A stretch of 36,974 bases of DNA from an uncultured Acidimicrobiales bacterium (GTDB taxonomy: Bacteria; Actinomycetota; Acidimicrobiia; Acidimicrobiales; SHLQ01), in the NCBI GenBank assembly GCA_938040365.1, contig CALHXU010000249.1, positions 1 through 36,974 on the forward strand, given 5' to 3'. This document shows, piece after piece, positions 6,536-34,007 of this stretch. A program made the translations under genes and the position numbers. The notes under the pieces were generated by a model that worked only from the letters and a program-made list of their open reading frames with translations, searched no databases and was not told the DNA's origin. Positions within the stretch are counted from its first letter, which is position 1, and each line of letters opens with the position of its first letter.

Positions 6536-6925
6536 TCAGTGATCGTGATGATGATCGTGATCGTGATCGTGATCGTGACCAGCGGGTCGCTCGAGAAATT
6601 CCTTGGAACGTTGGTCGACGTCGGTGATTTGCACGCCGGTGCTTCGGGCGACCAAGCGCTCAAGAGCGACGAGCCAGCATTCGTAGTAGCGATAGTCCTC
6701 GTTTGACTTGCCCAACGCCTCCCATTCGGCGATCGCTGTGATCAGTTCACCCTGAAAGTCCTCGAGGGTAAACAAACCGTTCTCGACAAGTGCGAGCGCC
6801 AGACCAAAGGCGCGACCTTCCCACGGCGAATCAAAAATCAGTTCACCATTGGACCGTGGAGCGGCTGCGGGACCATCGAGGTCGAGATCTTCGATGAGGA
6901 CGTTCTCGTACGTTTCTTGGGTCAT
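6536..6925 (-). CDS. Nitrile hydratase accessory (activator) protein with His-Asp metal tail
   Basis: 129 aa; ATG overlaps the alpha-subunit stop (ATGA). The body resembles the N-terminal part of nitrile hydratase beta (FDSPWEGRAFGLALALVENG, and YYECWLVALERLV), as in the small activator/cobalt-chaperone proteins encoded after Co-type nitrile hydratases. Residues 117-129 are an alternating His/Asp tail (13 residues, 8 His), a likely cobalt-binding segment. Its DNA is a run of GATCGT-type hexamers prone to slippage. The role is inferred as loading cobalt or exchanging alpha subunits during maturation. Confidence 0.85.
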   Translation of the reverse strand: MTQETYENVLIEDLDLDGPAAAPRSNGELIFDSPWEGRAFGLALALVENGLFTLEDFQGELITAIAEWEALGKSNEDYRYYECWLVALERLVARSTGVQITDVDQRSKEFLERPAGHDHDHDHDHHHDH

Positions 6926-7524
6926 GTCGGAGAACCAACTACAGCAACACCGACCATTGCTTCACGGGTGACTAACTCTGCGAGTTCTTCCTCGGACATG
7001 TCTTCGGTTCCTGAAGGTCGTTCAGGCAGGATGAAATACCTGTTCTCTGCGCTTGAGTCCCAAACCGTGACTTCGACATCTTCAGCGAGGTTGAGGCCCA
7101 TCTCGGAAAGGACGACGCGAGGTTCTCGAACGACCCTCGCCCGGTACGCCGGGTCCTTGTACCAGTCGGGTGGCAGCCCAAGTAGTGGCCAGGGGTAGCA
7201 CGAACATAACGTGCAGACCACCACGTTGTGGTTCTTGGCATCGTTGGGCACAACGACGATGTGCTCGCCCTGAGGTCCCGCAAAACCAAACTCGCCGACT
7301 GCGGCGGTGCCATCTTCGAGTAAGCGCTCGCGGTACTCTGGATCGGTCCACGCTCGAGCGACCACAGTCGCGCCATTCATCGGCCCAACATCATTAACAA
7401 ACCGATTGATCAATCCGTTGAGGCCGTCAGCGTTTACCAGTCCTTTCTCCGTGAGCAACGCCTCGAGGGCTTCGGCGCGAATCGGGGCTGGTGCTCGGTC
7501 ATCAGGATGAGGTTTTGCGGTCAT
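6922..7524 (-). CDS. nthA: Nitrile hydratase alpha subunit, cobalt type
   Basis: 200 aa using the ATG at 7524, which overlaps the beta stop (ATGA); a longer upstream frame is the shadow of beta. The metal site is C104-T-L-C107-S-C109 within VVCTLCSCYPWPLLG. A Thr after the first Cys marks the cobalt form (Ser marks iron), and the two later Cys are normally oxidised to sulfinic/sulfenic acids. Flanking family segments WTDPEYRERLL, PPDWYKDPAYRARVV and EPRVVLSEMG are intact. The enzyme hydrates nitriles to amides as an alpha-beta complex in the cytoplasm. Thiocyanate hydrolase belongs to the same Co family, so the substrate may be a thiocyanate-like C-N group. Gene order beta-alpha-activator is the usual Co-type order. 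Confidence 0.95.
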   Translation of the reverse strand: MTAKPHPDDRAPAPIRAEALEALLTEKGLVNADGLNGLINRFVNDVGPMNGATVVARAWTDPEYRERLLEDGTAAVGEFGFAGPQGEHIVVVPNDAKNHNVVVCTLCSCYPWPLLGLPPDWYKDPAYRARVVREPRVVLSEMGLNLAEDVEVTVWDSSAENRYFILPERPSGTEDMSEEELAELVTREAMVGVAVVGSPT

Positions 7525-8183
7525 GAGGTGGGCTCCATGTAGCTCTCGAATAGGTCGATGTTGAGGGTGTACGGCTCGGCGGTTGACCCCCACAGGTCGG
7601 TCGATGAGAAGGCGACGGTGTAGACGTGCTGAGCATCTTCGGCAGTGAAGTGGGCGGTGGAATCGGGGAGAACGGCAGCTGGCCGCAATGCAACGACGGT
7701 CCCGGTGTGTCCCCGTATGTAGGCGGGCATTCGATGGTGACCTTCGCGATGCATGTTGCGAGCCAACACGCGATCGCCGACGGCAAAGCCATGAGGGTCC
7801 TCGATCGAACGAATCGATCCCGAACCGTTTCGTTCGTACTGCGGTTTCTCACCTGACGTCTCGGTCGGTTCGGAGACCTCGTTGCCAAGCAGATTTTGGG
7901 CTCGGGCGTCTACAGCCCCTGCGGGCAGCACTCCGTGGTCGACGAGCAACAGCTCGGCGCATGCGAGCCAACGGCCGTAGTAGCCATCGGCGAGGTACTC
8001 GAGTGGGTGCAACCGTTCGAGCGCATGGCGAAATGCGTCGAGGTTCGTCCCCGACAATCCCGCCGACATTGCCCCCATCGCAAAAGCCCGTGCCTCCCAG
8101 TCCGATGCGAAGACCTTCTCATCGGGGTCGATAGCGACCGACCCCCATCCGTGCTGGCCACCCATGTCGTGAATTCCGTCCAC
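7521..8183 (-). CDS. nthB: Nitrile hydratase beta subunit
   Basis: 220 aa. I choose the GTG at 8183 because the family begins with the segment read here as VDGIHDMGGQHGWG and a GAGGGGGG ribosome site lies 5 bases upstream; the frame stays open further upstream to an ATG at 8285. Conserved arginines that contact the oxidised cysteines of alpha are visible in DWEARAF (R32) and HRMPAYIRG (R151, R158). The C-terminal SH3-like barrel is present (HVYTVAFSSTDLWG). It is the first gene of the operon beta-alpha-activator. Upstream is a 281-base divergent region shared with the XRE-cupin gene and carrying the motif also found before cbtB. Confidence 0.95.
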   Translation of the reverse strand: MDGIHDMGGQHGWGSVAIDPDEKVFASDWEARAFAMGAMSAGLSGTNLDAFRHALERLHPLEYLADGYYGRWLACAELLLVDHGVLPAGAVDARAQNLLGNEVSEPTETSGEKPQYERNGSGSIRSIEDPHGFAVGDRVLARNMHREGHHRMPAYIRGHTGTVVALRPAAVLPDSTAHFTAEDAQHVYTVAFSSTDLWGSTAEPYTLNIDLFESYMEPTS

Positions 8184-8276
8184 CGATTCCCCCCTCGTGA
8201 GATCACCCAAGCAGCTCGTCGAAATCCCCACATAGGAAAGTCCGAACCGCATGGTGAGTCTTTCGCGCCTTTTACG

Positions 8277-8318
8277 ACTTGTCAACTATGAGAGATGTAT
8301 GACTCCTAAAGGACATAT
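8277..8318. promoter_or_regulatory. Bipartite motif in the nitrile hydratase/XRE-cupin divergent region
   Basis: Two blocks, ACTTGTCAACTAT (8277-8289) and AGGACATAT (8310-8318), both recur exactly upstream of cbtB at 27009-27030. There they are fused without the 20 bases that separate them here. Read on the minus strand the first block contains TTGACA, a good -35 for nitrile hydratase. The remaining divergent region 8184-8464 shows no other clear element. Its likely ligand is the adjacent XRE-cupin regulator (inference). Confidence 0.6.
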
Positions 8319-8464: not shown

Positions 8465-9043
8465 ATGACCGACAACCAACTCGAAGAAGTCATCAGCTCG
8501 ATCGGGCCGAAGGTCAAAGAACTGCGAGACATGCGCGGTTATTCGCTACAGCAGTTATCAAATCGCTCAGCAGTTTCTCCCGCGGCGATTCACAAGGTTG
8601 AGCAAGGAAACATGGTCCCGACCATCACGACGCTGCTGAAGCTGGCCGCGGCGCTCGATCGACCGGTGTCCTATTTCGTCGAGGAAGAAGACTCCCCGCC
8701 TGCAGAACTCGTCTACACACCCGCCGACGGCCGCCGCCCCGTCTATACCTCTCACACCGGTATTGACCTGCAGGCAATCTCTGGCCCCTACGGTCGCTTC
8801 TTTGTCGCCGGGGCAGTCGCCGTCCTCGAGCCAGGTGCAACGAGCGGCGAGCAGGCCCTGCGTCACGCCGGTGAGGAACTGATCTTCGTCCTTTCCGGCT
8901 CGATGGAAGTCGACGTTGGCGAACAGAGCGTTCGACTCGGCGCTGGCGACTCGATTCACTTTCGCAGCGATCGCGACCACCGCTGGCGCAATCCAACAAA
9001 GAAATCGACAAAGGCGCTGTGGATGGCGCTTCGCCCAACCTAG
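8465..9043 (+). CDS. XRE-family transcriptional regulator with C-terminal cupin domain
   Basis: 192 aa. The HTH_3 domain is at about residues 10-65 (VKELRDMRGYSLQQLSNRSAVS, then AAIHKVEQGNMVPTI). The cupin domain is at about 100-190 (HAGEELIFVLSGSMEVDVGEQSV, then GDSIHFRSDRDHRW). Regulators of this architecture sense small molecules, often amino-acid-, sulfur- or nitrogen-related. It is divergent from nitrile hydratase and convergent with the coenzyme M operon (53 bases between stops), so it sits between the two modules and could control both. The ribosome site before the ATG is weak. Confidence 0.9.
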   Translation: MTDNQLEEVISSIGPKVKELRDMRGYSLQQLSNRSAVSPAAIHKVEQGNMVPTITTLLKLAAALDRPVSYFVEEEDSPPAELVYTPADGRRPVYTSHTGIDLQAISGPYGRFFVAGAVAVLEPGATSGEQALRHAGEELIFVLSGSMEVDVGEQSVRLGAGDSIHFRSDRDHRWRNPTKKSTKALWMALRPT

Positions 9044-9096: not shown

Positions 9097-10635
9097 CTAG
9101 CCTTGGTGCTCTGCAACGAGCGATCGGGCCTTCGCTACCAGCGCATCCTCGGCTCGCAGAAAGTGTTCCCGATGGCCTTGTCCCTCCTCGATCATCTCCG
9201 CGGCTTGGGCGCCAAAGCGATCGGCCATCTCGCACACCACATCGATTGCAGCACCGCCTGTTGCTGTGCGGGTCTCGACAATATTCACCGGATCGAGAAC
9301 AGCTGCCAGTTGATCAACGTCGAGTGAGAGCCCAAAGCCACAGATTTCTTCGGCGGCCTCATCGATCATCTCGGAAGTGATATCGAGGCCCCGTAGCTTG
9401 GCGTTGCTCGCCGACCGAACTACCTGGCCAACGACGCGGTACGCGCTTCGGTAATCGACATCGGTGGCCAACATGATGAACTCGGCAAGATCGGTCGCCT
9501 GGCTAAAGCCACCCTGAAGCTCTTCCCACATTCGATCGCTATTCACACTCAGCGTCCCGACCACTCCCGTCATCAGAGCACTGATTCGTGTCGAGAGCTC
9601 CAAGGCTCGAGGAATCTCGCCGTAGGCAAAGATCAGGTTGTCGCTTCGAGCAGACGGGCTCTTCACGACGGCGAGGAAGCCGGTAAGCCGCCCAATGAGC
9701 ACGCCACCAGCGCCGCGCACAATCGTGAGCGCATACGGATTCCGCTTTTGTGGCATGAGGACCGACGCACGAGTGTAGGGCCCGGCGAGGTCAACATAAT
9801 CAAACTCTTGACTCGCCCAAATCTCAAGGTCCTCGGCGAGCTTGGACTGATTCGAGATAAGGCTCGTGCTCGTTGCGAGTAGGTCGATGAAGGTATCGGT
9901 TTGCCACATTGCATCGCGCGTGTGGTCGATGACGTCGCTAAAACCCAACAGGTCAGCGATTGTCATACGGTCTTCGAGCAAACGACTCCCGTTGACGCAA
10001 CCCGCTCCACCCGGACTGAGGTTTACCTGTTCCATCGCAGACAGCAGCCGACCACCGTCACGAAGCGCTGGAGGGACAAAGGCCAGAATGTAATGGCCAA
10101 ATGTTGAGGGTTGGGCCTGTTGCAAATACGTCTGATCTGGCATCAGCACACCGCTGTTTTTCCGGGCGACATCGGCGGTCTCTTTTGCAAAACGCCCGGC
10201 CTCGATCACGAGTCCAGCGGTCTGCTCGCGTAGCAGAATTCGCAACGCAACTCGTGCCGCCTCGCGCCGCGGGCGACCTGCGTGAAGCCATCCCGCCGTA
10301 TTTCCTAAACGCTCGGCAAAGAGACGTTCGCGCGAGTTGTAGGGCTCACCGAACTGCGCGTCGTAGGGAAACTCTTCAGCGGGCGTCGAGTAGGCGATCA
10401 GCAATTCTGCAAGCAAATCTGCAGCGGGGCGGTCCGGAATGATACCCCTCTGATGCAGATCGAGAACATGTCCGAGGTCGGCGAGGTTAAGTCCGCCGTG
10501 GAGAAGCGGAGCATCGGCAATCTCCCACGCAAACCCCGCATCGATCAGCTCTTGAGCGGGAGCTGCTGACGATGGTCCTGCAATCCGCGAGCTTGCGGTA
10601 TCGGTTGGCTTCGCAGGTGGGACTGCTTTGGTCAT
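9097..10635 (-). CDS. Aspartase/fumarase-superfamily lyase, argininosuccinate-lyase-like (XcbD1-like, coenzyme M operon)
   Basis: 512 aa. Family landmarks are GNTAGWLHAGRPRRE (about 111-125), QAQPSTFGHYILAF (about 173-186), SPGGAGCVNGSRLL (207-220) and the signature ASVLMPQKRNP (290-300) with the expected catalytic Ser at 291. Genuine argininosuccinate lyases have a GSSLMPQKKNP-type signature and a nearby argG; none is present. Last of five overlapping genes with ComA, a second lyase and a PLP desulfhydrase-like enzyme, as in the Xanthobacter xcb genes for bacterial coenzyme M synthesis. There an ASL-like protein is thought to act on sulfoacrylate after phosphate elimination. The exact step is inferred. 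Confidence 0.8.
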   Translation of the reverse strand: MTKAVPPAKPTDTASSRIAGPSSAAPAQELIDAGFAWEIADAPLLHGGLNLADLGHVLDLHQRGIIPDRPAADLLAELLIAYSTPAEEFPYDAQFGEPYNSRERLFAERLGNTAGWLHAGRPRREAARVALRILLREQTAGLVIEAGRFAKETADVARKNSGVLMPDQTYLQQAQPSTFGHYILAFVPPALRDGGRLLSAMEQVNLSPGGAGCVNGSRLLEDRMTIADLLGFSDVIDHTRDAMWQTDTFIDLLATSTSLISNQSKLAEDLEIWASQEFDYVDLAGPYTRASVLMPQKRNPYALTIVRGAGGVLIGRLTGFLAVVKSPSARSDNLIFAYGEIPRALELSTRISALMTGVVGTLSVNSDRMWEELQGGFSQATDLAEFIMLATDVDYRSAYRVVGQVVRSASNAKLRGLDITSEMIDEAAEEICGFGLSLDVDQLAAVLDPVNIVETRTATGGAAIDVVCEMADRFGAQAAEMIEEGQGHREHFLRAEDALVAKARSLVAEHQG

Positions 10636-11645
10636 GTCGTCGACTTCCTTCCAAGAGCGCCCATGTGGTCGATCGCGCCGAGCGCGCCGCCGGTATTCCA
10701 GTAAAGAACTGGAAGGCTACTGAAGGTTCCTGCGCGAAACGCCGCCTTCAGCCAGGCCAGTGCCTTTGCGTTATATGTCGGGTCTACCGGCAAGCCGGTC
10801 GCTGAAGTAACTTCTGCCATGAGCGACCGTTGCTCGCTCGATACCTTGCCAAATCCCGGGTCGCGTCCGTCGCAGACTTCGAGGCGGGAACTCACCTCGG
10901 CTGGATCGATCGACTTACCGTGAAGACCTGCGCATGCAATTGCCGTCTCGATAATGGTGTCTTCGATGCCCGTCGGATCGCGCGAAACAGAGATCGCATA
11001 TACCCGCCACGGTCGCGTGGACGAGCAGAATCCGGCGACTAAACCTGCGGTGCTCCCTCCCGATCCAAGAGGAAGGACGATCGTGGTAGGGAGATCGACG
11101 TGGGCTTGCCCATCGAGTTCTTCGGCTGCGGCGTAGAACCCAAGAGCGCCAACCGGTGATGCCCCACCCCTCGGAATTCGATAGGGACGAGCGCCCGCGA
11201 TCGTGGCTTCAGCGCAGTAGCGTTCGGCAGCGATGTCCATCATCGAGCGATCGTTCGACCCTGTGAAGATGACTCGGGCGCCCATACTTCGCCCAAACAT
11301 CAGACCAGCGACAAACCCATTGGGCTCGACGCCGTAGCTGAATTGTTGCACGCTCAAGCCAACCGTTCGAGCAGCAGCGGCCATCAGCGCAGCAAAGTTC
11401 GACGAAGGGCCACCCGCGAGAACAATGTCGGTCGCATTCTCAGCGAGCGCTGCTCCAAGGAGAAACTCGATGCTTCGAACTTTGTTGCCGCCCCACGAGA
11501 ATCCCGAGAGATCGTCGCGCTTTAACCAGAGCTGACCATCGCTCGCTCCAAGAACACTCCCAAGCTGATCGTCGCGGTGCACCGCGGTAGGCCACAGTCC
11601 GAGCTGAACCCGAGGATGAGCTCCTCGATCTTCAATCACCTGCAC
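10632..11645 (-). CDS. PLP-dependent D-cysteine desulfhydrase/ACC-deaminase-like enzyme (XcbE1-like)
   Basis: 337 aa from GTG, 3 bases after the upstream lyase and overlapping the next lyase by 4. Fold type II PLP enzyme. The likely Schiff-base Lys is K55 in WLKRDDLSGFSWGGNKVRSIEFLL (residues 40-63). A phosphate-binding glycine loop is at PLGSGGSTAGL, and YWNTGGALG near the end matches the family C-terminal motif. Relatives cleave C-S or ring bonds of cysteine analogues. In a coenzyme M operon the proposed job is to release the thiol from a cysteine adduct. The reaction here is inferred from context. Confidence 0.8.
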   Translation of the reverse strand: MQVIEDRGAHPRVQLGLWPTAVHRDDQLGSVLGASDGQLWLKRDDLSGFSWGGNKVRSIEFLLGAALAENATDIVLAGGPSSNFAALMAAAARTVGLSVQQFSYGVEPNGFVAGLMFGRSMGARVIFTGSNDRSMMDIAAERYCAEATIAGARPYRIPRGGASPVGALGFYAAAEELDGQAHVDLPTTIVLPLGSGGSTAGLVAGFCSSTRPWRVYAISVSRDPTGIEDTIIETAIACAGLHGKSIDPAEVSSRLEVCDGRDPGFGKVSSEQRSLMAEVTSATGLPVDPTYNAKALAWLKAAFRAGTFSSLPVLYWNTGGALGAIDHMGALGRKSTT

Positions 11646-11648
11646 TGA

Positions 11649-13034
11649 TCACAAGCCCCACACATCTGATTCGTTGGACCGCCGTGCTCGCAATGAAGCC
11701 AGCACGCTGGCGACCATCTCTTCGGACGAAGCGCTGTTTGGCGCGTGCGTAATCGGTAGTTCGATGTCTGCGATCTCGGCCGGAAGCCGCTTTCGTACTT
11801 CGGTGGAAAAATCTCCGCCACGAGCCTTCGAAAGGTACGCCTGATGAAGGAGATCCTGGGCTTGGTGTTTGCCCAAGTGCGGAGTCAGAAACGAGAGCAT
11901 CTCCTCTGATTCTGCACTTCCGTTAGCGAGGTTCGCGAGCATCTGGTCAGCGTCGACCTCGATCCCATCGATCAGTGCTCTGGCCATTGCCGTCGCAGCG
12001 CACGCGTAGTTGCACAGCTCTGGGAAGACCGCCCATTCAGCCTTCCAGCCGCGAGCATCGCGCTCGTGCTCTTGGACCATCGTGTCGAGCAATGTCGCTG
12101 CACCGGAGCGGACAAGTCGCGCAAGCACAACGATTTGTTCGCTCGACTCAGGGTTTCGCTTATGTGGCATCGTGATACTGCCGACCACCGAGTCGCTTGT
12201 GGCTTCACAAAGCTCGCCGATCTCGGCGCGCTGTAGCGAGTAGACCTCGTTGGCTATCCGAGCAAGACCGGTCGTCGACATTGCAAGCACCGATGCAAAC
12301 TCTGCAACCCGATCACGTGCGGTCAGCCACGAGATGTCTGGTTCGCCCAAGCCAAGCTCGGTCGCGAATGCTGCCCGCAGCTCCAGCGCCTGCCCACCAA
12401 AGAACCCGAGTGACCCAACCGCTCCCCCGAGTTGGCACACCAATGCCCGGGATTGCAGTGATTGCAGACGCTCGAGCGAACGACCAATCTCGTCAGCCCA
12501 CGACGCTACCTTGAAGCCAAAGGTGATCGGAGCTCCGGGTTGGCCGTGCGTCCGGCCGACCATTGGAGTTGCTGCATGTGTACTCGCCAAAGCACAGAGC
12601 GCCCGCTCTGTTTCGCGAAGGTCCGCCCAGATCAGGTTCCCGATTTCGGCCATCTCCATCGACATCGAGGTATCGGTTACATCTTGAACCGTGATGCCGA
12701 CATAGATGTGGTCGCGGGCCGCTTCGGAGAGCATTTCTCTCAGGATGCGAATTAGCCCGAGCGTCGAATGCGATGTCGCTCGAGTCTGTTCGGCAACCGC
12801 TTCGAGCGGAATTTCACGACCGACCAGCGAGCCTATCTCGTCTGCTGCCGACCTAGGAATGATGTTCAGCGAGGCTTGCGCACGGGCCAGCGCCGCAAGG
12901 ATCTCGACCCACCGCTGCATCCGTCGTTGTTCTGAGAAGACGCTCCGCGACTCCGGCGTTGCCCAGGAATGGCCAAAGATGACCGAGTCGATCATGTGTG
13001 CGCCGAGCGCCTCGTCGCTCAAACTGGGCTCCAC
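11649..13034 (-). CDS. Aspartase/fumarase-superfamily lyase, adenylosuccinate-lyase/CMLE-like (XcbC1-like)
   Basis: 461 aa from GTG at 13034; an in-frame ATG at 12995 begins MIDSVIFGHSWATPE, which is close to where family members start, and is a good alternative. Motifs are TSMSMEMAE with VGRTHGQPGAP (about 123-169), then GSITMPHKRNPESSE (about 285-299), the superfamily signature with catalytic Ser. No pur genes are near. In Xanthobacter a functionally distinct member of this family eliminates phosphate from phosphosulfolactate to give sulfoacrylate; this gene, beside comA, is the best candidate for that step. It overlaps the preceding orphan gene by 16 bases with the long start. Confidence 0.8.
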   Translation of the reverse strand: MEPSLSDEALGAHMIDSVIFGHSWATPESRSVFSEQRRMQRWVEILAALARAQASLNIIPRSAADEIGSLVGREIPLEAVAEQTRATSHSTLGLIRILREMLSEAARDHIYVGITVQDVTDTSMSMEMAEIGNLIWADLRETERALCALASTHAATPMVGRTHGQPGAPITFGFKVASWADEIGRSLERLQSLQSRALVCQLGGAVGSLGFFGGQALELRAAFATELGLGEPDISWLTARDRVAEFASVLAMSTTGLARIANEVYSLQRAEIGELCEATSDSVVGSITMPHKRNPESSEQIVVLARLVRSGAATLLDTMVQEHERDARGWKAEWAVFPELCNYACAATAMARALIDGIEVDADQMLANLANGSAESEEMLSFLTPHLGKHQAQDLLHQAYLSKARGGDFSTEVRKRLPAEIADIELPITHAPNSASSEEMVASVLASLRARRSNESDVWGL

Positions 13035-13963
13035 GAAAACTCGGCAGATTCGACGATCGCCTCAATTCCAGCTCGCACTTCAGCGAGCGTCGAACCCCAC
13101 GGCACGAGAACGGTCTGACCTTGCTGTTCCATCCCTTCTTGGAGCATGCAACAACGTGTGAGCATGGCGTCCTCGCTAGTGTTGTCCAAGAACTGTTTTG
13201 GGCAGGTGTCGACCGAGGGTGCGTCGTCGTCGTAGAACCAACCGTGAATTTGTCTGGTTCGTTCGCATCCAAGAATGGTCCAGTCCGCCTTCGTTGGACG
13301 CCCGTCGAGGAACGCCACGTCGGTCTCTCCAAAGTCAACCCCGGTTGCTCGACATGGCAGCAAGATTTGATCGTTGTGCGCTCCTTGCTCCTCGAGCAAG
13401 GTCCGGCTGTCGATCGCCGACGAAGCGAACATGATCGGGGGTAGATCTTCGCCAACGTCGAGAACACGTTGTGCTTGGTCCATCAACTTGGATGGCTCAG
13501 GCGGCACGATGTCGAGCACCATGATCCCGAGCGCGGCCGGGTTGAGGATGAAACTGACGTGGGAGTACAACCCCTCCACGAATACACACCTCGCAGCGGG
13601 CTCGGTCGCTGCGACGCGAGCGAGCACCGATGGCACGCCGACATCGGCGTTTGGGTCACGAATGAACGCGCACTCGGTTGGGTCTGCGAGCAATCGAAGC
13701 GCCACGATCTCGGCAAAGAGTTCGCCGGTCTCGGCCTTGGCAACTTCGACAAGAGCCACTTCTGCTTCGTTGTCAACGATGATGAAGCGCGTGGTCATAT
13801 ACGCTTCCCGACCAACGAAGTGATCCCGCAGTAGCGTTTCGGTGAGCGCGAAGTCCACTGTTGCCATCGCTACTTTCCGGTACTTGATCGGGACGATGTT
13901 CGGCGCAGTCGGGTCGAGGTCGAACGGGCTCATTTGCGTGTCGACCGCTCGAGCATCTGACAT
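13019..13963 (-). CDS. Unrecognised protein in the coenzyme M operon (314 aa)
   Basis: Starts at ATG 13963, overlapping the comA TGA by one base (TGATG); a TTG one codon earlier is also possible. The soluble protein has several cysteines and histidines: LLPCRATGVD, ILGCERTRQIHGWFYDDD, DTCPKQF and LTRCCMLQEG. The HGWFYDDD segment with Cys on both sides could bind a metal (inference). The N-terminal half reads VPIKYRKVAM and then a region repeating ALVEVAKAE-type strands. No signal peptide or membrane span. I do not recognise a family. Because it is translationally coupled between comA and the lyase it probably performs a pathway step, for example the decarboxylation that a C3-sulfonate-to-coenzyme-M route needs. 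Confidence 0.85.
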   Translation of the reverse strand: MSDARAVDTQMSPFDLDPTAPNIVPIKYRKVAMATVDFALTETLLRDHFVGREAYMTTRFIIVDNEAEVALVEVAKAETGELFAEIVALRLLADPTECAFIRDPNADVGVPSVLARVAATEPAARCVFVEGLYSHVSFILNPAALGIMVLDIVPPEPSKLMDQAQRVLDVGEDLPPIMFASSAIDSRTLLEEQGAHNDQILLPCRATGVDFGETDVAFLDGRPTKADWTILGCERTRQIHGWFYDDDAPSVDTCPKQFLDNTSEDAMLTRCCMLQEGMEQQGQTVLVPWGSTLAEVRAGIEAIVESAEFSWSPV

Positions 13964-14751
13964 CAACTAATCCCGATAGTGGTCGAAAGACCGAGCGTGT
14001 CGGCGCGTAGCCCGAACCGGAGTGTGTCGACGGCGAGGACTTCTGCAGGCGCAATATTTCCGAGATTCACGCGGGGCCCAACCCGCTGGATGTGGGCGGC
14101 CTGTTGAGCGCGATAGGGGGCTTCGTAAATAATCTTGTCGCGGTCAACCCGAGATTCGATGGTGTCGACGATGTAGTCCCGAAGGGTTCCGTCGGCGTTG
14201 TACAACCCAACGGTTCCACTTTCCCGACCCTCAGCGACGACCCAGCGGGCTCCGGCGGCAAGATCTCCTTCGACTTCGTCGGCCCACTCCGTTGCATCGA
14301 CCGGTGCGTTTGGGTCCTTGCTGCCGACCTCGGAGAGCACGATGCGTCCTCGTTCGAGCGCCGTGGCCATGAGTTGGCGTTTCGCACTAATCGGCAGGCC
14401 CGTGGCCCCGTTGCTGACCTCGACACAGTCGATCCCGACGGCGACAACCCAGTCGAAGAACTCTTGGGTTCGTCCTTGGATCCACGCAATCTCGAGCAAC
14501 GTGCCGCCCGTGCACGAGAGCACAGATGCAGCGGTGAGCAATTCGAGCTTCTGATCGAGTTCTTTGTCGAGGTAGGAAGTTCCCCAACCGAACTTCCAGA
14601 TGTCGATGCTCGTAGAAACAGCTTTGAGCGTTGCTCGTGTTGCAGCGGCGGTGAGACCACGGTCGATCACATGGGAGACACCAGACGCGCGCGGTTTCGA
14701 TGGCCGGGATGGAAGAGCCAAGAAGTCCGGCTGGCCGGTGTTGGCGTCCAT
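13963..14751 (-). CDS. comA: Phosphosulfolactate synthase (ComA)
   Basis: 262 aa with AAAGGA 8 bases before the ATG. Family motifs in order: SHVIDRGL (26-33), DIWKFGWGTSYL (50-61), GGTLLEIAW, EVSNGATGLP, VLSEVGSKDP, VVAEGRESGTVGLYNADG, IIYEAPYRAQQAAHIQRVG, NLGNIAPAEVLAVDTLRFGLRADT (given as separate short runs in the family order). ComA adds sulfite to phosphoenolpyruvate to make (R)-phosphosulfolactate, the first committed step to coenzyme M. First of a five-gene operon. Upstream, a TACGAT hexamer inside an ATACGATACGA repeat may be its -10. Spore-forming bacteria also use a ComA homologue for sulfolactate, but the lyases and PLP enzyme here point to coenzyme M. Confidence 0.93.
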   Translation of the reverse strand: MDANTGQPDFLALPSRPSKPRASGVSHVIDRGLTAAATRATLKAVSTSIDIWKFGWGTSYLDKELDQKLELLTAASVLSCTGGTLLEIAWIQGRTQEFFDWVVAVGIDCVEVSNGATGLPISAKRQLMATALERGRIVLSEVGSKDPNAPVDATEWADEVEGDLAAGARWVVAEGRESGTVGLYNADGTLRDYIVDTIESRVDRDKIIYEAPYRAQQAAHIQRVGPRVNLGNIAPAEVLAVDTLRFGLRADTLGLSTTIGIS

Positions 14752-14865: not shown

Positions 14866-15270
14866 TTAGCTTCCGTGCGCCGTCCCTGAAAACGACAGAT
14901 CGACTCCCCCGGCGATGGTGTTGGTCACGTAACACACCTTCCGGGCCTCCGCGATCAGTGGTTCAACCATCTCTGGTGCGCAACCAATTTCGGCTTCGAT
15001 GTGGATCGACGAGAACTTGGGGCCGTCGTAAGTGCCGGTGACGTCAACCAGAAGATGTGCAAGCTCGACGTCGAGCTTTCTCGCTGACCACGACAGCGCC
15101 AGCGTAAAGCAAGAAGCTACCGATCCAAGCAATACCGACGTTGGGTTCGGGCCTTGATTCGTTCCCCCAGGTACCGACTCAGGTTCATCGACCAACATGT
15201 CGAACTCACCCATCGAGACCTCACTGAGCCATGCTCCCCGCGACACGCTATGCACGGTCTTTTGTCCCAT
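14866..15270 (-). CDS. OsmC/Ohr-family protein
   Basis: 134 aa using the ATG at 15270, which has GGAGGGG 5-6 bases upstream; the upstream 42-codon extension is not needed. Motifs: GGTNQGPNPTSVLLGSVASCF (the first Cys near the helix), and the second conserved Cys in ARKVCYVTNTI. Two-Cys OsmC/Ohr proteins reduce organic hydroperoxides or bind thiols and persulfides. It lies upstream of comA on the same strand (114 bases) and downstream of the AllH gene. A thiol-protection role in the cluster is inference. Confidence 0.85.
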   Translation of the reverse strand: MGQKTVHSVSRGAWLSEVSMGEFDMLVDEPESVPGGTNQGPNPTSVLLGSVASCFTLALSWSARKLDVELAHLLVDVTGTYDGPKFSSIHIEAEIGCAPEMVEPLIAEARKVCYVTNTIAGGVDLSFSGTAHGS

Positions 15271-15473
15271 CCTTGCCCCTCCTCGCTCTTCAACGTTGCT
15301 TGTTGACTTGTCTGCTTTGCTCGTTCTCAGGCGCTCTTTGCCACATGCACTTATCGTCCAACGTTCGACGCCTGATCCGCGTATCGATGATGGCAACCTT
15401 AACCGATATCAGCGGCCAATATTCACTATCGGAGATGAGCGAGCAGTATCGGATCGTCTTCGCTAGATCACCA

Positions 15474-16271
15474 TCAGAGCACCGACAAAGCCAGTTCGGA
15501 TTCAATTCCGAACACCAGACCAGCGAGCAGCGCCCGACCCGAAGAACCTCCGATAGCACAAAGTTCCTCCACCGCGCGACAGAACCCGAGAGTCTGTGTC
15601 TCAGCTGAAGTATCGACGAGACGGTGGACCGGAGCGATGCTCTGCCCACGCGCCGCCCATCTCAGAAAACTCTCACTTAATCGGGTCGTCTCCATTTTCT
15701 CGATCAGCTGGACCCGCGCCTCTGTTGCGACAAGTGACGGGCGTTCCCAAGCGTCTATAAGCATCAATCCAGCGATGACATCGTCACCGCTCGGCGTCAA
15801 TCCCTCACCTCTCCCCATCAACAGACGAAGAACTCTCGTGGGTTGCGCGTTTCGACCAGCGCTTCGAACGTCGTCCCAAACATCGATGAGATCGGATCCG
15901 ATCAAGGTCTCGGCGTCGAGCTCCCGACAACGCTTTCGAAAGTCATCGAGTCCGCCTTCGGTGGGCAGCGGAGGCGACCACCGAGTCGACGTCTGAAGAT
16001 CGATCGAAACGTCAATCTCCGCGTTCGAGCGCCTCATCGACCCGACGATGGACCTCTCGACGTCCTCGGCCGACGATGAATCGATCACGATATGGAGCGG
16101 TCCCGGAGGGATTGCTCCGAGGGCGAGCACTCGTTCGCCAAACCGCAGGTAGCAGCCCGAAGAGAAGACATCCACGACTGAACCGCAGAGCCTCGTCTCT
16201 CCTCGAGTGCGTAACTCCTCTGCGGCCATGCCATGAGATGCAGCGGCTAGGCAATTTTCGAAGGCACTCAC
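15474..16271 (-). CDS. allH: AllH-like oxamate carbamoyltransferase subunit (DUF2877)
   Basis: 265 aa. I use the GTG at 16271, which overlaps the AllG stop (GTGA); a longer frame reaches 16313. The family hallmark MGRGEGLTPSGDDVIAG is at about 156-172, followed by a helical C-terminus. In E. coli, AllF, AllG and AllH (formerly FdrA, YlbE, YlbF) together form the enzyme that splits oxalurate to oxamate and carbamoyl phosphate at the end of anaerobic allantoin use. AllF and carbamate kinase are at 21339-23871 on the other strand. No allantoin genes are present, so the carbamoyl donor may be different. Confidence 0.85.
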   Translation of the reverse strand: MSAFENCLAAASHGMAAEELRTRGETRLCGSVVDVFSSGCYLRFGERVLALGAIPPGPLHIVIDSSSAEDVERSIVGSMRRSNAEIDVSIDLQTSTRWSPPLPTEGGLDDFRKRCRELDAETLIGSDLIDVWDDVRSAGRNAQPTRVLRLLMGRGEGLTPSGDDVIAGLMLIDAWERPSLVATEARVQLIEKMETTRLSESFLRWAARGQSIAPVHRLVDTSAETQTLGFCRAVEELCAIGGSSGRALLAGLVFGIESELALSVL

Positions 16272-17692
16272 CCCAAGCGGGCGTCGAGGTCGGCGACGGC
16301 CTGAACAAAGCACTCCATCGGCGCGTAGGCAACGCCTGCACCGACTTGGCCGGATCCGTCAGAGATATGCACGATGCCGGTGTTGACCGCCGGAGTGATG
16401 CCCTGCTCGACGACACGACGAACGTCAACACCGACCGGGGTTCCGACGAAGTCGAGAATAGGAAGCCGGAACCTGCTCGACTCGCCTACGCAGATCTGCT
16501 CCATGTTGCGTGTAGCTGCAATGGCATCGGACATTCGACCTCCGAGGAACCCGGCCACCGCCGGAGAGTTCGCAGCTGCCGGGCCGCCTAGGCCAACAAG
16601 TTCGAGAACGGCGCTGTCTCCAATGTCAGGAGCACTCGTGTCGGGGGCTTGCCCGGGGTAGTAGAGCGCATCCTTCACTGGCGGTGACGGCGCGAGGAAC
16701 CACCGATCGTCGTGGCCGGGAAGCCTGATGCCGTAAGTCGTTCCGTTGCGCGACATCGTGGTCACAACGCTCGAGTTCTGCACCTCCCCCGCCCACATGA
16801 CAAGCGATTTCGCCGCGGCCATTGCAATGTTGAGAAACATGAGGTGGTTGCCGCTCAGAAAGAACCCGACATCGGCAGCGTCGTCATGAGTAGAGGCAAC
16901 GAGCGGCCCCAACAAATCTCGCAGGAACAAGTTGGTGGTGGCTTGGACTCTCATGTGAACGTCGTCGCCCATCGCGACGCCCTGGGCGGCTAGGGAGAAG
17001 ATATCGATCGGCCCCTTGGACTCGATCGCCTCCCCCAGGACCGGCCCGACCGAATCGTTCAGAAAGCGAAGTCGCTCGATAGCACTATCGGAATCAACAC
17101 CAAACCACGGCACGTCACCAGAGCCCTGATTCACCGTCGAATACGCAACGGTAGAACCAGCCTCGTTCGAGACGATATACACCGGCGCTGAAGGGCCGAC
17201 CGCAGTTGCCATAGGCACAACCGTCGAATATTCGTTCGCCGCCAAGAGGGTGACCTCCCCCGACGCTGCCATCTGAGCAGCGTCAGAAACGTTCTGCGCC
17301 CAACCTTCAGAAACGATGACCGCTTGGATCGAGCGTTGGAGCGGATTTACCATGTTCTCCCACGCAATCGCTGGTCCGCAGTGCAAGATCTGTCGACCTG
17401 AGAAGTTTGGGATCACCGCACCCGCACGATCGACAGAGGTGAGCATGGGCACCCCCTCGTTCAACCGACGCACGACCTCAGAATTCGCATCGTCGATCGT
17501 TTTTCCGTGGGGTCCGAACAGACGGCCGAGCGAGTCCACGACGTTCGCGTCGCCACCCCCGGGAATTCGCCAGTCGACCTGGACTGCGTTGGCACCCTGG
17601 TCGAGTACCGAGTCCTTGAATAGCGGTAGACCAACGTTGATCACATTAACCTCGGTTGGGAGGGTCACGGTTGGACTCGTCGTGGACGTCAT
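16268..17692 (-). CDS. allG: AllG-like oxamate carbamoyltransferase subunit (DUF1116)
   Basis: 474 aa from ATG 17692 with AGGCGACA as a short ribosome site; the frame remains open to 17803, but that would cross the divergent promoter. Recognisable DUF1116 segments: VINVGLPLFKDSVLDQG near the N-terminus, VDWRIPGGGD, MGDDVHMRVQATTNLFLRDL, FLSGNHLMFLNIAMAAAKS, and SRNGTTYGIRLPG. Partner of AllH with a 4-base overlap. In the E. coli complex the division of labour among subunits is not fully defined. Divergent from the AIR-synthase-like gene with 77 bases between starts. Confidence 0.88.
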   Translation of the reverse strand: MTSTTSPTVTLPTEVNVINVGLPLFKDSVLDQGANAVQVDWRIPGGGDANVVDSLGRLFGPHGKTIDDANSEVVRRLNEGVPMLTSVDRAGAVIPNFSGRQILHCGPAIAWENMVNPLQRSIQAVIVSEGWAQNVSDAAQMAASGEVTLLAANEYSTVVPMATAVGPSAPVYIVSNEAGSTVAYSTVNQGSGDVPWFGVDSDSAIERLRFLNDSVGPVLGEAIESKGPIDIFSLAAQGVAMGDDVHMRVQATTNLFLRDLLGPLVASTHDDAADVGFFLSGNHLMFLNIAMAAAKSLVMWAGEVQNSSVVTTMSRNGTTYGIRLPGHDDRWFLAPSPPVKDALYYPGQAPDTSAPDIGDSAVLELVGLGGPAAANSPAVAGFLGGRMSDAIAATRNMEQICVGESSRFRLPILDFVGTPVGVDVRRVVEQGITPAVNTGIVHISDGSGQVGAGVAYAPMECFVQAVADLDARLG

Positions 17693-17756
17693 TGTCGCCT
17701 GCCATTTCTTCGAATCGGTGCGACAGTCACAACTACCGCTGCCGCGAATGTTTACT

Positions 17757-17769
17757 ATACGATACGACG
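17757..17769 (+). promoter_or_regulatory. Leaderless -10 element of the AIR-synthase-like gene
   Basis: TACGAT at 17758-17763 occupies -12 to -7 relative to the A of the ATG at 17770, so the predicted transcript starts at the start codon. It is embedded in ATACGATACGA (17757-17767), the same 11-mer found before comA. No clear -35. The motif also lies 65-75 bases upstream of allG on the opposite strand. Confidence 0.6.
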
Positions 17770-18753: not shown

Positions 18754-19287
18754 CTACGCGCAGATGAGCAGAGAGCTATCGGACATGTCAACGCTCGGCA
18801 GTCGGAGGAGCGCTTGTGCGGTCGGCTGTGAAGCTATCGGCGCAACATTTGAAAGGCTGATGACCATCGGTTGGTGCGGCTCGCCATAGTAGGGACGAAC
18901 ATCACCATCTCGACTCCAACCAAGACGCTCAAAGAACCGAGTGTTTCGGGCTTGAACAGTGGCTTCCATAATCGAGCCACCCGCCTCTGCTGCGGTTGCG
19001 ACGGCGTACCGTACCAGGTCTGCCCCAACCGTCGAGAGTCGATGTCCTTTGAGAACCGCCAAACGGTCGCCCTTCCAGATTCTGTCACTCACTGCATAGA
19101 CCCGGACCGTTCCCGCAATCTCGGTACCCCGCGCAGCGAGAATGTTTTTGGTCTCTGGGTCGCGATCCCACTCGTCCACATCGGTGAGCACCATGAGTCG
19201 CTGCTCGGCAACAAAGACCTGGTGACGAATACTGAGGTGCGCCGAATTCGTCGCATCGGTATTGGTCCAAACAGAGACGCCCGCCAT
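18754..19287 (-). CDS. GNAT N-acetyltransferase, MSMEG_0567/Sll0786 family (Nit1C component)
   Basis: 177 aa using the ATG at 19287, 8 bases after the radical SAM stop; the upstream 96 codons of open frame are the shadow of that gene. The GNAT fold shows in LSIRHQVFVAEQRLM, AGTVRVYAV, GDRLAVLKGHRL, and a C-terminal VQARNTRFFERLGW with the usual acceptor-side phrase FFERLGW. Found adjacent to radical SAM and AIR-synthase-like genes in Nit1C clusters, so an acyl transfer step on an unknown Nit1C intermediate is expected. The acyl-CoA donor is not known. Confidence 0.87.
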   Translation of the reverse strand: MAGVSVWTNTDATNSAHLSIRHQVFVAEQRLMVLTDVDEWDRDPETKNILAARGTEIAGTVRVYAVSDRIWKGDRLAVLKGHRLSTVGADLVRYAVATAAEAGGSIMEATVQARNTRFFERLGWSRDGDVRPYYGEPHQPMVISLSNVAPIASQPTAQALLRLPSVDMSDSSLLICA

Positions 19288-19295
19288 TGGATCTG

Positions 19296-34001: not shown

Positions 34002-34007
34002 GACGGG

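What the first reader, a model, noticed from the sequence alone, without database searches (positions are those of the whole stretch)
9097..14751. Complete-looking bacterial coenzyme M biosynthesis operon in an actinobacterium without an alkene/epoxide module
Five overlapping genes encode ComA, an unrecognised protein, two aspartase/fumarase-family lyases and a PLP desulfhydrase-like enzyme. The same set of families forms the xcb coenzyme M genes of Xanthobacter, where coenzyme M serves epoxide carboxylation. Here no alkene monooxygenase or epoxyalkane:coenzyme M transferase is in the window; nitrile hydratase and Nit1C genes are. This suggests a new use for coenzyme M or a related sulfonate thiol.
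Basis: partly seen in the sequence, partly recalled or inferred. Interest (0 to 1): 0.88.

Follow-up and report, generated by a model that had tools for sequence, protein, structure and literature searches.

The report
Coenzyme M genes in nitrile cluster
A set of bacterial genes that makes coenzyme M, so far tied in bacteria to growth on alkenes, sits here inside a conserved gene cluster for nitriles and nitrogen recovery, which points to an unknown use of this small sulfur cofactor.

Summary
Confirmed and extended. Window 9097-14751 (-) is an intact five-gene Xcb-type coenzyme M (CoM) operon: ComA/XcbB, XcbA, XcbD, XcbE, XcbC. XcbC, XcbD and XcbE group with Xcb enzymes, apart from ArgH, PurB/PcaB and D-cysteine desulfhydrase outgroups. 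No epoxyalkane:CoM transferase (EaCoMT) ortholog was found in the 90.7%-complete own genome.
Of 86 xcb loci or records examined, 20 (Actinomycetota, Alphaproteobacteria) share one conserved cluster: Nit1C genes, one nitrile-type hydrolase (nitrile hydratase, nitrilase or amidohydrolase), AllF/G/H/K, a disulfide-reductase-family enzyme, OsmC and an XRE-cupin regulator. Their first-read neighbourhoods hold no EaCoMT; 51 others carry epoxide-module genes and none of 12 cluster markers. AllG orthologs: 20 of 20 cluster-type against 1 of 22 alkene-type genomes.
CoM, or a close sulfonate thiol, most likely serves nitrile/cyanide nitrogen recovery. Proposed, untested: CoM-SCN to S-carbamoyl-CoM to carbamoyl phosphate to ATP, NH3 and CO2. 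Against: five cluster genomes lack XcbE; xcb-less relatives exist; one plasmid holds an EaCoMT remnant.

The parts
13963..14751 (-). ComA / XcbB, phosphosulfolactate synthase
   Evidence: Pfam ComA 247 bits, NCBIfam arch_ComA 241 (cut-off 280); 38-50% identical to 6 ComA copies of 5 plasmid records
13019..13966 (-). XcbA (DUF7714), role in CoM synthesis not assigned here
   Evidence: NCBIfam XcbA family 306 bits over cut-off 150; AlphaFold model pLDDT 93.1 with no convincing fold match in the PDB
11649..13034 (-). XcbD, aspartase/fumarase-family lyase (3-sulfopropionylcysteine synthase by NCBIfam name)
   Evidence: XcbD 517 bits, cut-off 600; in the cluster-type XcbD clade, 99; GSITMPHK and HST signatures
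10632..11645 (-). XcbE, PLP enzyme of the CoM pathway
   Evidence: XcbE 203 bits, cut-off 450; cluster-type XcbE one clade (100) inside Xcb, apart from 6 D-cysteine desulfhydrase/ACC deaminase outgroups; GGNK motif kept
9097..10635 (-). XcbC, phosphate-eliminating ArgH-like lyase
   Evidence: XcbC 424 bits, cut-off 575; tree; TYLQ, RxSxxxPQKRNP and RRE signatures shared with Xanthobacter XcbC
8465..9043 (+). XRE-cupin regulator of the cluster
   Evidence: HTH_3 + Cupin_2; in 24 of 29 cluster genomes or records read
7521..8285 (-). nitrile hydratase beta subunit
   Evidence: NHase_beta N and C domains
6922..7593 (-). nitrile hydratase alpha subunit, cobalt-type motif CTLCSC
   Evidence: TIGR01323 292 bits over cut-off 250; the three cysteines kept in 13 of 13 cluster alpha subunits, the full CTLCSC in 12 of 13; that this motif marks the cobalt type is recalled
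6536..6925 (-). nitrile hydratase accessory protein
   Evidence: TIGR03889 71.7 bits over cut-off 46
5080..6402 (-). FAD/NAD(P) disulfide-reductase-family enzyme (CoA-disulfide/persulfide reductase and NADH oxidase family), candidate CoM-disulfide reductase
   Evidence: CoA-disulfide reductase models 253-254 bits, below cut-offs 458 and 579; SPCGIP with Cys42 in 18 of 18; PDB relatives NADH oxidase, CoA-persulfide and CoA-disulfide reductase
4799..5083 (-). 94-aa conserved protein, unknown
   Evidence: found beside the reductase in 18 of 20 first-set genomes or records
4229..4717 (-). MSMEG_0572/Sll0783 nitrogen-starvation protein (Nit1C)
   Evidence: TIGR04044 212 bits over cut-off 110; Cys115 in 17 of 17
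14866..15396 (-). OsmC-family protein
   Evidence: Pfam OsmC; Cys96 and Cys155 in 19 of 19
15474..16313 (-). AllH, carbamoyltransferase subunit
   Evidence: Pfam AllH 78 bits
16268..17803 (-). AllG (DUF1116), carbamoyltransferase subunit
   Evidence: Pfam AllG 221 bits; ortholog in 20 of 20 cluster-type genomes or records, own included
17656..18741 (+). AIR-synthase-like protein, sll0787 family (Nit1C NitF); overlaps the 5' end of the AllG ORF, so its true start is probably further in
   Evidence: TIGR04049 251 bits, cut-off 321, match from residue 51
18754..19575 (-). GNAT N-acetyltransferase (Nit1C NitE)
   Evidence: TIGR04045 88 bits over cut-off 68
19296..20468 (-). radical SAM protein (Nit1C NitD)
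   Evidence: TIGR04043 372 bits over cut-off 304
20618..21256 (-). 213-aa protein of the cluster, unknown
   Evidence: no Pfam family; in 14 of 29 cluster genomes or records read
20955..22346 (+). carbamate kinase (AllK/ArcC); the match begins at residue 132, so the true start is probably near 21345
   Evidence: TIGR00746 331 bits (cut-off 358) and NF009007 293 bits over cut-off 266
22336..23871 (+). FdrA/AllF, carbamoyltransferase subunit
   Evidence: FdrA model 410 bits, cut-off 433; Ligase_CoA
23868..25010 (+). MSMEG_0565-family glycosyltransferase (Nit1C-associated)
   Evidence: TIGR04047 370 bits over cut-off 260
26010..26747 (-). CbtA cobalt transporter, possible cobalt supply for the nitrile hydratase
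   Evidence: Pfam CbtA; similar proteins (30-37%) beside the cluster in G003, G143 and G207

Best explanation
The five genes are an Xcb-type coenzyme M (2-mercaptoethanesulfonate) operon that belongs to a conserved cluster of about 20 genes for recovering nitrogen from a nitrile or cyanide, not to epoxide metabolism. Shown from sequence: the operon is intact, of Xcb type, without an EaCoMT found in the genome, and tied to the same partners across two phyla. Inferred: the cell makes CoM to carry or activate the nitrile-level C-N unit. The mechanism I think most likely (about 0.2 on its own): cyanide attacks oxidised CoM (disulfide or sulfenate, made with OsmC or O2) to give CoM-SCN, which cannot cyclise because CoM has no amino group. 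The nitrile hydratase (nitrilase or an amidohydrolase in other lineages) hydrates it to the thiocarbamate CoM-S-CONH2. AllF/G/H then move the carbamoyl group to phosphate, freeing CoM-SH; AllK turns carbamoyl phosphate into ATP, NH3 and CO2; and the CoA-disulfide-reductase-like enzyme returns CoM disulfide to the thiol. The radical SAM/GNAT/AIRS part is unexplained. The confidence given is for the general claim: CoM or a close sulfonate thiol, made for the nitrile/carbamoyl nitrogen module.
For: Operon and family signatures. Of 86 xcb loci or records examined (80 kept of 120 matches, 5 plasmid loci, the window), 20 are cluster-type, 51 alkene-type, 15 unassigned. The 20 cluster-type loci have no EaCoMT, CoA-transferase or alkene monooxygenase hit in the first-read stretch, and 2-KPCC gives only 22-26% cross-hits on the reductase gene; none of the 51 alkene-type loci has any of 12 cluster markers. 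Cluster-type XcbA, XcbD and XcbE form clades (98, 99, 100), with one XcbA exception, L045. AllG at 52% or more in 20 of 20 cluster-type genomes or records against 1 of 22 alkene-type genomes tested of the 51. In an even draw of 396 genomes of the own phylum, AllG (52% or more, E up to 1e-100) occurs in 9 and XcbA (E up to 1e-20) in 10; 8 have both (hypergeometric 2.9e-14, or 3.9e-11 without the own genome and G229, not corrected for kinship). Gene order is reshuffled between genomes while the set stays together. In 25 of 29 cluster genomes or records exactly one of nitrile hydratase (16), nitrilase (3), amidohydrolase (6) was found; in 4, read only in part, none. The reductase and the 94-aa gene were not found in the stretches read of the related xcb-less clusters of G118, G183 and G369. 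Chemistry: AllFGH is a transcarbamylase, with the carbamate kinase gene allK in the operon, in E. coli (PMC11326118, passages); Nit1C is linked to cyanide assimilation in Pseudomonas (PMC11049912, passages); HCN reacts with MESNA, the sodium salt of CoM, and cyanide most likely cleaves cystamine to 2-aminoethylthiocyanate, which cyclises (PMC12447481, passages). A Methylocystis plasmid carries cytochrome bd-type oxidase genes beside the cluster.
Against: No experiment; neither CoM nor any intermediate was measured. XcbE was not found (E up to 1e-10) in G013, G132, G164, G207 and G293, five of seven genomes searched for it and chosen because their clusters lacked it; CoM may not be the end product there, or another PLP enzyme acts. 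Ten of 19 genomes with MSMEG_0572 in the draw of 396 have no XcbA match (one of these, G143, has XcbC at a contig end), so Nit1C as such does not need CoM; three of them (G118, G183, G369) also have AllG at 40-42%, AllK and an amidohydrolase without xcb. In the canonical Nit1C stretches of G254 and G414 an amidohydrolase (66-69%) stands near a distant nitrilase match (26-32%), so the amidohydrolase is not always a stand-in for the nitrile enzyme. AllH and AllK were not found in the Methylocystis clusters, nor AllK in Nitrobacter, which weakens the carbamoyl phosphate step for the nitrilase variants. The Methylocystis iwaonis plasmid holds a short, frame-broken EaCoMT remnant about 19 kb from its xcb genes (L007 about 12031-12368; hidden before by my length filter), and Methylocystis sp. 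Sn-Cys has a true EaCoMT with a second xcb locus, so in Methylocystis an epoxide link is not excluded. AllFGH activity is shown, in the passages seen, only with oxamate/oxalurate. NCBIfam cut-offs for XcbC, XcbD and XcbE are not reached. CoM-SCN and S-carbamoyl-CoM have no support beyond gene content and analogous chemistry.
Confidence: 0.65

Rival explanations
1. CoM still serves an epoxide or other electrophile: an unrecognised, non-homologous CoM transferase takes the place of EaCoMT, and the nitrile genes are neighbours by habitat only.
For: A 2024 paper states that CoM genes were known only from methanogens and aerobic alkene users (PMC11507031, passages). Nine cluster-type genomes have EaCoMT-like matches at 27-48%, several over parts of the query only; the own genome has one protein at 29%; the Methylocystis iwaonis plasmid has an EaCoMT remnant.
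Against: No CoA-transferase or intact EaCoMT in any of the 20 cluster-type loci, and only 22-31% cross-hits of 2-KPCC; 8 of 18 other cluster-type genomes and the own genome have no EaCoMT match at E up to 1e-5; 0 of 51 alkene-type loci have any of 12 cluster markers, so chance neighbourhood does not explain the set.
Confidence: 0.12
2. The cluster builds a product: CoM, or a sulfonate intermediate, is a building block that the radical SAM, N-acetyltransferase, AIRS, carbamoyltransferase and glycosyltransferase enzymes turn into a larger thiol cofactor or metabolite; the nitrile enzyme is a tailoring step.
For: GT, GNAT, radical SAM and carbamoyltransferase together look biosynthetic (inference); the GT scores weakly with MshA and BshA, enzymes of mycothiol and bacillithiol synthesis; XcbE is missing in five genomes.
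Against: A carbamate kinase of AllK/ArcC type and nitrile hydratase point to nitrogen release; Nit1C is linked to cyanide assimilation in Pseudomonas (PMC11049912, passages); radical SAM, GNAT and AIRS genes occur in canonical Nit1C without xcb, in most with the GT.
Confidence: 0.15
3. CoM is only a protective low-molecular-weight thiol here, a redox or cyanide buffer kept reduced by the CoA-disulfide-reductase-like enzyme and used by OsmC, not a carrier in catalysis. (This overlaps with the general claim above, so the odds do not add to one.)
For: The reductase and OsmC are cluster members with conserved cysteines; in methanogens raising CoM protects from oxidative stress (PMC12713407, title and start of abstract in a search listing).
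Against: Actinobacteria already have mycothiol (recalled); a general buffer would not need to stay linked with AllFGHK and a nitrile-type hydrolase in so many genomes.
Confidence: 0.15

Closest known systems
xcb coenzyme M operons of alkene degraders (Xanthobacter autotrophicus Py2 pXAUT01, Nocardioides sp. JS614 pNOCA01, Mycolicibacterium chubuense NBB4)
   Same: Same five families; ComA-XcbA-XcbD-XcbE-XcbC order as in JS614 and NBB4; XcbC/XcbD signature residues shared; a reductase homologous to the window's (about 30%) nearby in both (29 of 51 alkene-type loci, JS614 itself included, have a protein at least 38% identical to the JS614 one)
   Different: XcbA 34-41% and ComA 38-48% identical; separate XcbA, XcbD and XcbE clades; no EaCoMT, CoA-transferases or monooxygenase near the window operon; instead nitrile, Nit1C and carbamoyl genes
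Nit1C cluster (nitBCDEFGH of Pseudomonas; MSMEG_0565-0572; sll0783-sll0787)
   Same: Radical SAM MSMEG_0568, GNAT MSMEG_0567, AIRS sll0787, MSMEG_0572 and GT MSMEG_0565 families
   Different: Nitrile hydratase instead of nitrilase in the window; adds xcb, AllFGHK, a disulfide-reductase-family enzyme, OsmC and XRE-cupin; five canonical Nit1C genomes inspected show none of the xcb genes in the 20 kb read
allFGHK of Escherichia coli (oxamic transcarbamylase and carbamate kinase; PMC11326118, passages)
   Same: AllF, AllG, AllH and AllK families all present
   Different: No allantoin-pathway genes were recognised among the window ORFs scanned; substrate here unknown
Methylocystis iwaonis SD4 plasmid NZ_CP143315 cluster
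   Same: Same cluster with xcb, OsmC, XRE, AllG, AllF, reductase, 94-aa protein, MSMEG_0572, radical SAM, GNAT, AIRS, GT
   Different: Nit6803-type nitrilase instead of nitrile hydratase; AllH and AllK not found; cytochrome bd-type oxidase genes next door; a broken EaCoMT remnant about 19 kb away

Membership tests
Bacterial (Xcb) coenzyme M operon | ComA plus XcbA, XcbC, XcbD, XcbE families together | tested here: met
   XcbA over its cut-off, the other Xcb families best-scoring but under NCBIfam cut-offs, ComA under the archaeal ComA cut-off but far over Pfam's
Bacterial (Xcb) coenzyme M operon | Lyases and PLP enzyme fall in the Xcb clades, not with ArgH, PurB/PcaB, D-cysteine desulfhydrase | tested here: met
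   (quick trees, SH-aLRT only; outgroups of 4, 5 and 6 sequences)
Bacterial (Xcb) coenzyme M operon | Xcb-specific residues (TYLQ, R-S-PQKRNP in XcbC; GSITMPHK in XcbD) | tested here: met
Bacterial (Xcb) coenzyme M operon | Makes coenzyme M | not testable with these tools
   needs LC-MS or enzyme assay
Alkene/epoxide CoM cluster | Epoxyalkane:CoM transferase in the genome | tested here: not met
   genome 90.7% complete
Alkene/epoxide CoM cluster | 2-KPCC and CoA-transferases beside xcb | tested here: not met
   (window: 26% cross-hit of 2-KPCC on the reductase, no CoA-transferase hit)
Alkene/epoxide CoM cluster | Alkene monooxygenase in the genome | tested here: inconclusive
   PF02332 no match, but controls rang nowhere
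Nit1C cluster | MSMEG_0572, radical SAM MSMEG_0568, GNAT MSMEG_0567 families | tested here: met
   all three over curated cut-offs
Nit1C cluster | sll0787-type AIRS protein | tested here: inconclusive
   best-scoring family but 251 bits under cut-off 321
Nit1C cluster | Nitrilase NitC | tested here: not met
   no hit of the Methylocystis nitrilase in the window; nitrile hydratase instead. So it is not filed as a canonical Nit1C cluster
AllFGHK carbamoyltransferase/carbamate kinase | AllF, AllG, AllH and carbamate kinase all present | tested here: met
   (AllF 410 bits, cut-off 433; carbamate kinase model NF009007 over cut-off)
AllFGHK carbamoyltransferase/carbamate kinase | Acts on oxalurate/oxamate | not testable with these tools
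   needs enzyme assay
Cobalt-type nitrile hydratase | Alpha subunit CTLCSC motif, beta subunit and activator | tested here: met
   (meaning of the motif recalled)
Thiocyanate hydrolase | Gamma subunit scores over its family cut-off | tested here: not met
   186 bits, cut-off 291

The most novel reading that the evidence does not exclude
Coenzyme M is a covalent carrier of cyanide-level nitrogen: cyanide is captured as CoM-thiocyanate, hydrated by nitrile hydratase to S-carbamoyl-CoM, and the carbamoyl group is passed by AllFGH to phosphate, so that an ATP-yielding cyanide or nitrile assimilation pathway runs on a cofactor known from methanogenesis. It would be a CoM function outside methyl and epoxide chemistry.
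Probability: 0.2. Interest if true: 0.95.

Novelty: new variant of a known kind. Interest (0 to 1): 0.82.

Why it matters
[quoted passage not shown] The conserved clusters described here weaken that inference: xcb genes do not by themselves mark alkene users. They also offer a second bacterial role for CoM that can be tested in species available as strains (Nocardioides, Kribbella, Terrabacter, Pseudonocardia, Methylocystis), and a new handle on Nit1C, for which, in the passages seen, only the nitrilase has an assigned reaction in cyanide use (PMC11049912).

Tried and rejected
Rejected: the lyases as ArgH/PurB. Rejected: the own-genome PF01717 protein (L001:985-2127) as EaCoMT; it is 29% identical to the Nocardioides enzyme and nearest, among plasmid records, to methionine-synthase-II-family proteins. 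Rejected: natural complementation in G026. Its cluster shows ComA and XcbC only and its alkene-type locus L033 has ComA, XcbA, XcbD, XcbE, which looked complementary, but a second XcbC lies elsewhere in the genome, so I make no use of it. Rejected: that the cluster hydratase of Pseudonocardia thermophila is the crystallised enzyme of that species; its match to 1ire/1ugp is weaker than to other Co-type hydratases (that 1ire is the P. thermophila enzyme is recalled). Led nowhere: PDB fold search with the XcbA model (TM-scores by query length at most 0.22 in the 50 rows listed); the second aligner was not available; PF02332 search without a ringing control; intergenic stretches were printed but no operator-site analysis was done. 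The original CoM pathway papers (Wu 2022, Partovi 2018) are not held, so their content is recalled or second-hand from passages of PMC8727900 and PMC11507031. Literature searches for a link of CoM with nitriles, cyanide or Nit1C found none in the rows listed (open-licence PMC papers only, capped lists in 28 and 51).

Rows dropped or placed by hand: L022 was unclassified by the marker rule (contig end, only OsmC) and was counted as cluster-type because of the XcbA tree and the AllG contig of the same genome. G229 in the draw of 396 appears to be the genome G013 (same contig coordinates). The second Xanthobacter copy (L002b) was added to the trees of XcbA, XcbC and XcbD, not of XcbE. L041, L048 and L071 were dropped between the first try and the later XcbA alignments. 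The second Methylocystis iwaonis record (NZ_AP027143) was not read. Fifteen xcb loci stay unassigned.

Full report
Observation. By Pfam and NCBIfam they are ComA (13963-14751), XcbA/DUF7714 (13019-13966, 306 bits over a cut-off of 150), XcbD (11649-13034), XcbE (10632-11645) and XcbC (9097-10635); Xcb models beat all others for the two lyases and the PLP enzyme, though below NCBIfam's strict cut-offs. Neighbours overlap or are 3 bases apart, as in a translationally coupled operon.

Are the lyases really Xcb enzymes? Trees were built with 4 ArgH, 5 PurB/PcaB/ASL-family and 6 D-cysteine desulfhydrase/ACC deaminase outgroups fetched from plasmid records. XcbC: 70 Xcb rows against 4 outgroups, separated with SH-aLRT 100. 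XcbD: 71 rows against 5, 93. XcbE: 66 rows against 6, 98. These are quick trees without bootstrap. The window XcbC has Tyr in 'TYLQ' where ArgH has His, 'RxSxxxPQKRNP' and 'RRE', shared with the Xanthobacter copies; XcbD has 'GSITMPHKRNPE' and 'HST'. The GGNK motif of XcbE is kept.

Is there an epoxide module elsewhere? The window lies in a 3.63-Mb assembly of 277 contigs, 90.7% complete. Its only PF01717 match is a 380-aa protein on another contig, 29% identical to the Nocardioides EaCoMT, with nearest plasmid relatives (57%) annotated as cobalamin-independent methionine synthase II family in Ruegeria. The Xanthobacter EaCoMT finds only a 31% match over 108 residues of that same protein, and the Nocardioides EaCoMT finds nothing at E up to 1e-5. 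The genome is actinobacterial: the phylum draw around it contains what appears to be the genome of 'Actinobacteria bacterium RYN_267' (G229 = G013, same contig coordinates), and its GroEL is nearest to a '60 kDa chaperonin 2' (that this is the M. tuberculosis protein is recalled).

Discovery of the conserved cluster. A tblastn of XcbA against plasmids hit six records. Four are alkene-type by their neighbours. Of the two Methylocystis iwaonis records I read one, NZ_CP143315: the operon stands beside a complete Nit1C set with nitrilase, AllG/AllF genes and cytochrome bd oxidase genes. A scan of genome contigs with an alignment of 7 XcbA proteins gave 120 relatives, of which the best 80 were kept. 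With 5 plasmid loci and the window that makes 86. By neighbours, 51 are alkene-type (35 with EaCoMT at 42% or more; the rest by 2-KPCC or CoA-transferases), 20 cluster-type (including L022, placed by hand), 15 unassigned, many of them short contigs. In the first-read stretches no cluster-type locus has an EaCoMT, CoA-transferase or alkene monooxygenase hit; 2-KPCC gives 22-26% cross-hits on the reductase gene in four of them. No alkene-type locus has any of 12 cluster markers. In the longer stretches read later one hit breaks the pattern: the Methylocystis iwaonis plasmid has a short remnant of EaCoMT in two frames at L007 about 12031-12368, some 19 kb from its xcb genes. My coverage filter had hidden it. 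A 31% match to 2-KPCC lies near the cluster of G004.

Kinship. Nineteen of the 20 cluster-type XcbA form one group (98); the exception, L045, has an alkene-like XcbA apart from an otherwise cluster-type operon. Cluster-type XcbD (99) and XcbE (100) form clades; XcbC needs two changes. The window's nearest relatives are Kribbella and Nocardioides and the alphaproteobacterial Methylocystis and Nitrobacter, so the cluster has probably crossed phyla.

Whole-genome tests. EaCoMT was searched in 24 genomes: of 19 cluster-type genomes only Methylocystis sp. Sn-Cys (G001) has a true one (50%), and that genome has a separate alkene-type xcb locus (L081); eight others and the own genome have none, nine have partial or distant matches (27-48%). 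Of five alkene-type controls four rang at 51-87%, one at 32%. AllG of the window has an ortholog (52-68% in the 19 others) in 20 of 20 cluster-type genomes or records, against 1 of 22 alkene-type genomes at 50% or more, two at 38-40% and 19 without (22 of the 51 were tested); the one exception, G026, turned out to carry the cluster as well.

Independent draw. In 396 genomes drawn evenly from the own phylum, AllG at 52% or more occurs in 9, XcbA in 10, both in 8 (hypergeometric p 2.9e-14; 3.9e-11 without the own genome and G229; no correction for kinship). The ninth AllG genome (G143) has XcbC at a contig end; of the two remaining XcbA genomes, G164 is a fragment of the same cluster and G110 a 3.4-kb contig. 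MSMEG_0572 occurs in 19, of which 9 also have XcbA; of the 10 others one is G143 and nine show no xcb gene in the stretch read. Five of those nine are canonical Nit1C genomes, one (G140) was cut by a contig end, and three (G118, G183, G369) have an AllG-containing relative of the cluster without xcb, the reductase and the 94-aa gene in the stretches read.

Content. Over 29 cluster genomes or records read (20 first found, 8 from the draw, G026), many cut by contig ends, the counts are: XcbC 28, AllG 28, XcbD 27, OsmC 27, XcbA 26, GT 26, AllF 25, ComA 24, XRE-cupin 24, reductase 23, 94-aa protein 23, MSMEG_0572 22, XcbE 21, GNAT 20, AIRS 20, AllK 19, AllH 17, radical SAM 16. The nitrile-type step is nitrile hydratase in 16, nitrilase in 3, an Amidohydro_2 protein in 6, none found in 4 that were read only in part, never two. 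The order of the modules differs between genomes. Residues: the three cysteines of the hydratase alpha subunit in 13 of 13 and the full CTLCSC in 12 of 13, SPCGIP with one conserved Cys in 18 of 18 reductases, two cysteines in 19 of 19 OsmC, one in 17 of 17 MSMEG_0572.

Reading. The set contains a thiol (CoM), enzymes that could oxidise and reduce it (OsmC, CoA-disulfide-reductase family), a nitrile-type hydrolase, a carbamoyl transferase and a carbamate kinase. A chain that uses them all is CoM disulfide + HCN to CoM-SCN, hydration to S-carbamoyl-CoM, transfer to phosphate, and ATP + NH3 + CO2 by carbamate kinase. [quoted passage not shown] coli, with allK in the operon (PMC11326118, passages); MESNA reacts with HCN, and cyanide most likely splits cystamine to a thiocyanate that cyclises through its amino group (PMC12447481, passages), which CoM lacks. 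The thiocarbamate/thiocyanate pair and AIRS-superfamily proteins recall HypF/HypE (recalled; the window AIRS protein scores only 24 bits with HypE). None of the chain is shown; I give it 0.2, and 0.65 to the broader claim.

Against. XcbE is missing from five genomes; AllK and AllH were not found in the Methylocystis clusters; xcb-less relatives with AllG and an amidohydrolase exist, with an alkanesulfonate-monooxygenase-like protein (two genomes and a partial third) and a PLP enzyme instead; in two canonical Nit1C stretches (G254, G414) an amidohydrolase stands near a distant nitrilase match, so it need not be a stand-in; an EaCoMT remnant and, in a relative, a true EaCoMT occur in Methylocystis; no product has been measured.

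Place among known things. The operon is a member of the Xcb family by sequence; the whole is not a canonical Nit1C cluster, since its nitrilase is replaced. No paper linking CoM with nitriles, cyanide or Nit1C was found in the rows listed by four searches of the open library, and PMC11507031 states that CoM genes were known only from methanogens and aerobic alkene users (passages). XcbA gives a confident model (pLDDT 93.1) with no convincing PDB match.

A further context seen in passing: in four Chloroflexota loci the xcb genes run together with MtaA-like CoM methyltransferase homologs, a corrinoid-activation protein and, in three of the four, MtrH, which hints at a third use of CoM in bacteria.

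Noticed in passing
L086:1541-17003, L066:1276-12865, L075:405-7818, L053:1455-9035: Four Chloroflexota xcb loci without EaCoMT or nitrile-cluster hits carry MtaA/CmuA-family (URO-D) methylcobamide:CoM methyltransferase homologs, a RACo/AcsV-type corrinoid activation protein and (in L066, L075, L086) an MtrH-family gene, which in L086 lies between ComA and XcbC. L086 XcbC and XcbD pass the strict NCBIfam cut-offs, XcbE does not. Suggests CoM-dependent corrinoid methyl transfer in bacteria.
   Followed up: partly
L142, L144, L146 (G118, G369, G183): Related nitrogen clusters with MSMEG_0572 (64-70%), radical SAM, GNAT, AIRS, amidohydrolase, AllG (40-42%) and AllK but no xcb, disulfide reductase or 94-aa gene in the stretch read; they hold an alkanesulfonate-monooxygenase-like protein (partial in G118) and a PLP aminotransferase-like enzyme instead.
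   Followed up: partly
G013, G132, G164, G207, G293: XcbE is not found in these genomes (E up to 1e-10) although XcbC/XcbD and other cluster genes are there; the last step or the product may differ.
   Followed up: no
L007 about 12031-12368: Short remnant of EaCoMT in two frames (51% over 71 and 66% over 41 residues to the Xanthobacter enzyme) on the Methylocystis iwaonis plasmid, about 5 kb from the reductase end of the cluster and 19 kb from xcb; perhaps a relic of an alkene module.
   Followed up: no
window 13019-13966 and other XcbA: XcbA/DUF7714 gives a confident AlphaFold model (pLDDT 93.1) without a convincing fold match in the PDB; Cys205, Cys234, Cys255, Cys272, Cys273, His136 and His241, invariant in 28 aligned proteins, could form a metal site.
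   Followed up: partly
L007:14406-16841: cydA/cydB cytochrome bd-type oxidase genes stand next to the cluster on the Methylocystis plasmid and in G001, perhaps a cyanide-insensitive oxidase.
   Followed up: no
G018/L045:156-1010: An alkene-type XcbA beside an otherwise cluster-type operon, as if one XcbA had replaced the other, which would fit a shared reaction.
   Followed up: no
L102:10136-12016 and L106:5160-7028: Corrinoid-activation-protein-like genes (31% to the Chloroflexota one) lie near two Pseudonocardia cluster stretches.
   Followed up: no
window 30361-31320 and 31450-32412: Two neighbouring SH3-domain proteins of nearly equal length, probably a tandem duplication.
   Followed up: no
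window 33570-35201 (+) and 32450-34048 (-): A cytochrome P450 match on the + strand ORF overlaps a GH4 glycosidase ORF on the - strand at its 5' end; the P450 start is probably further in.
   Followed up: no
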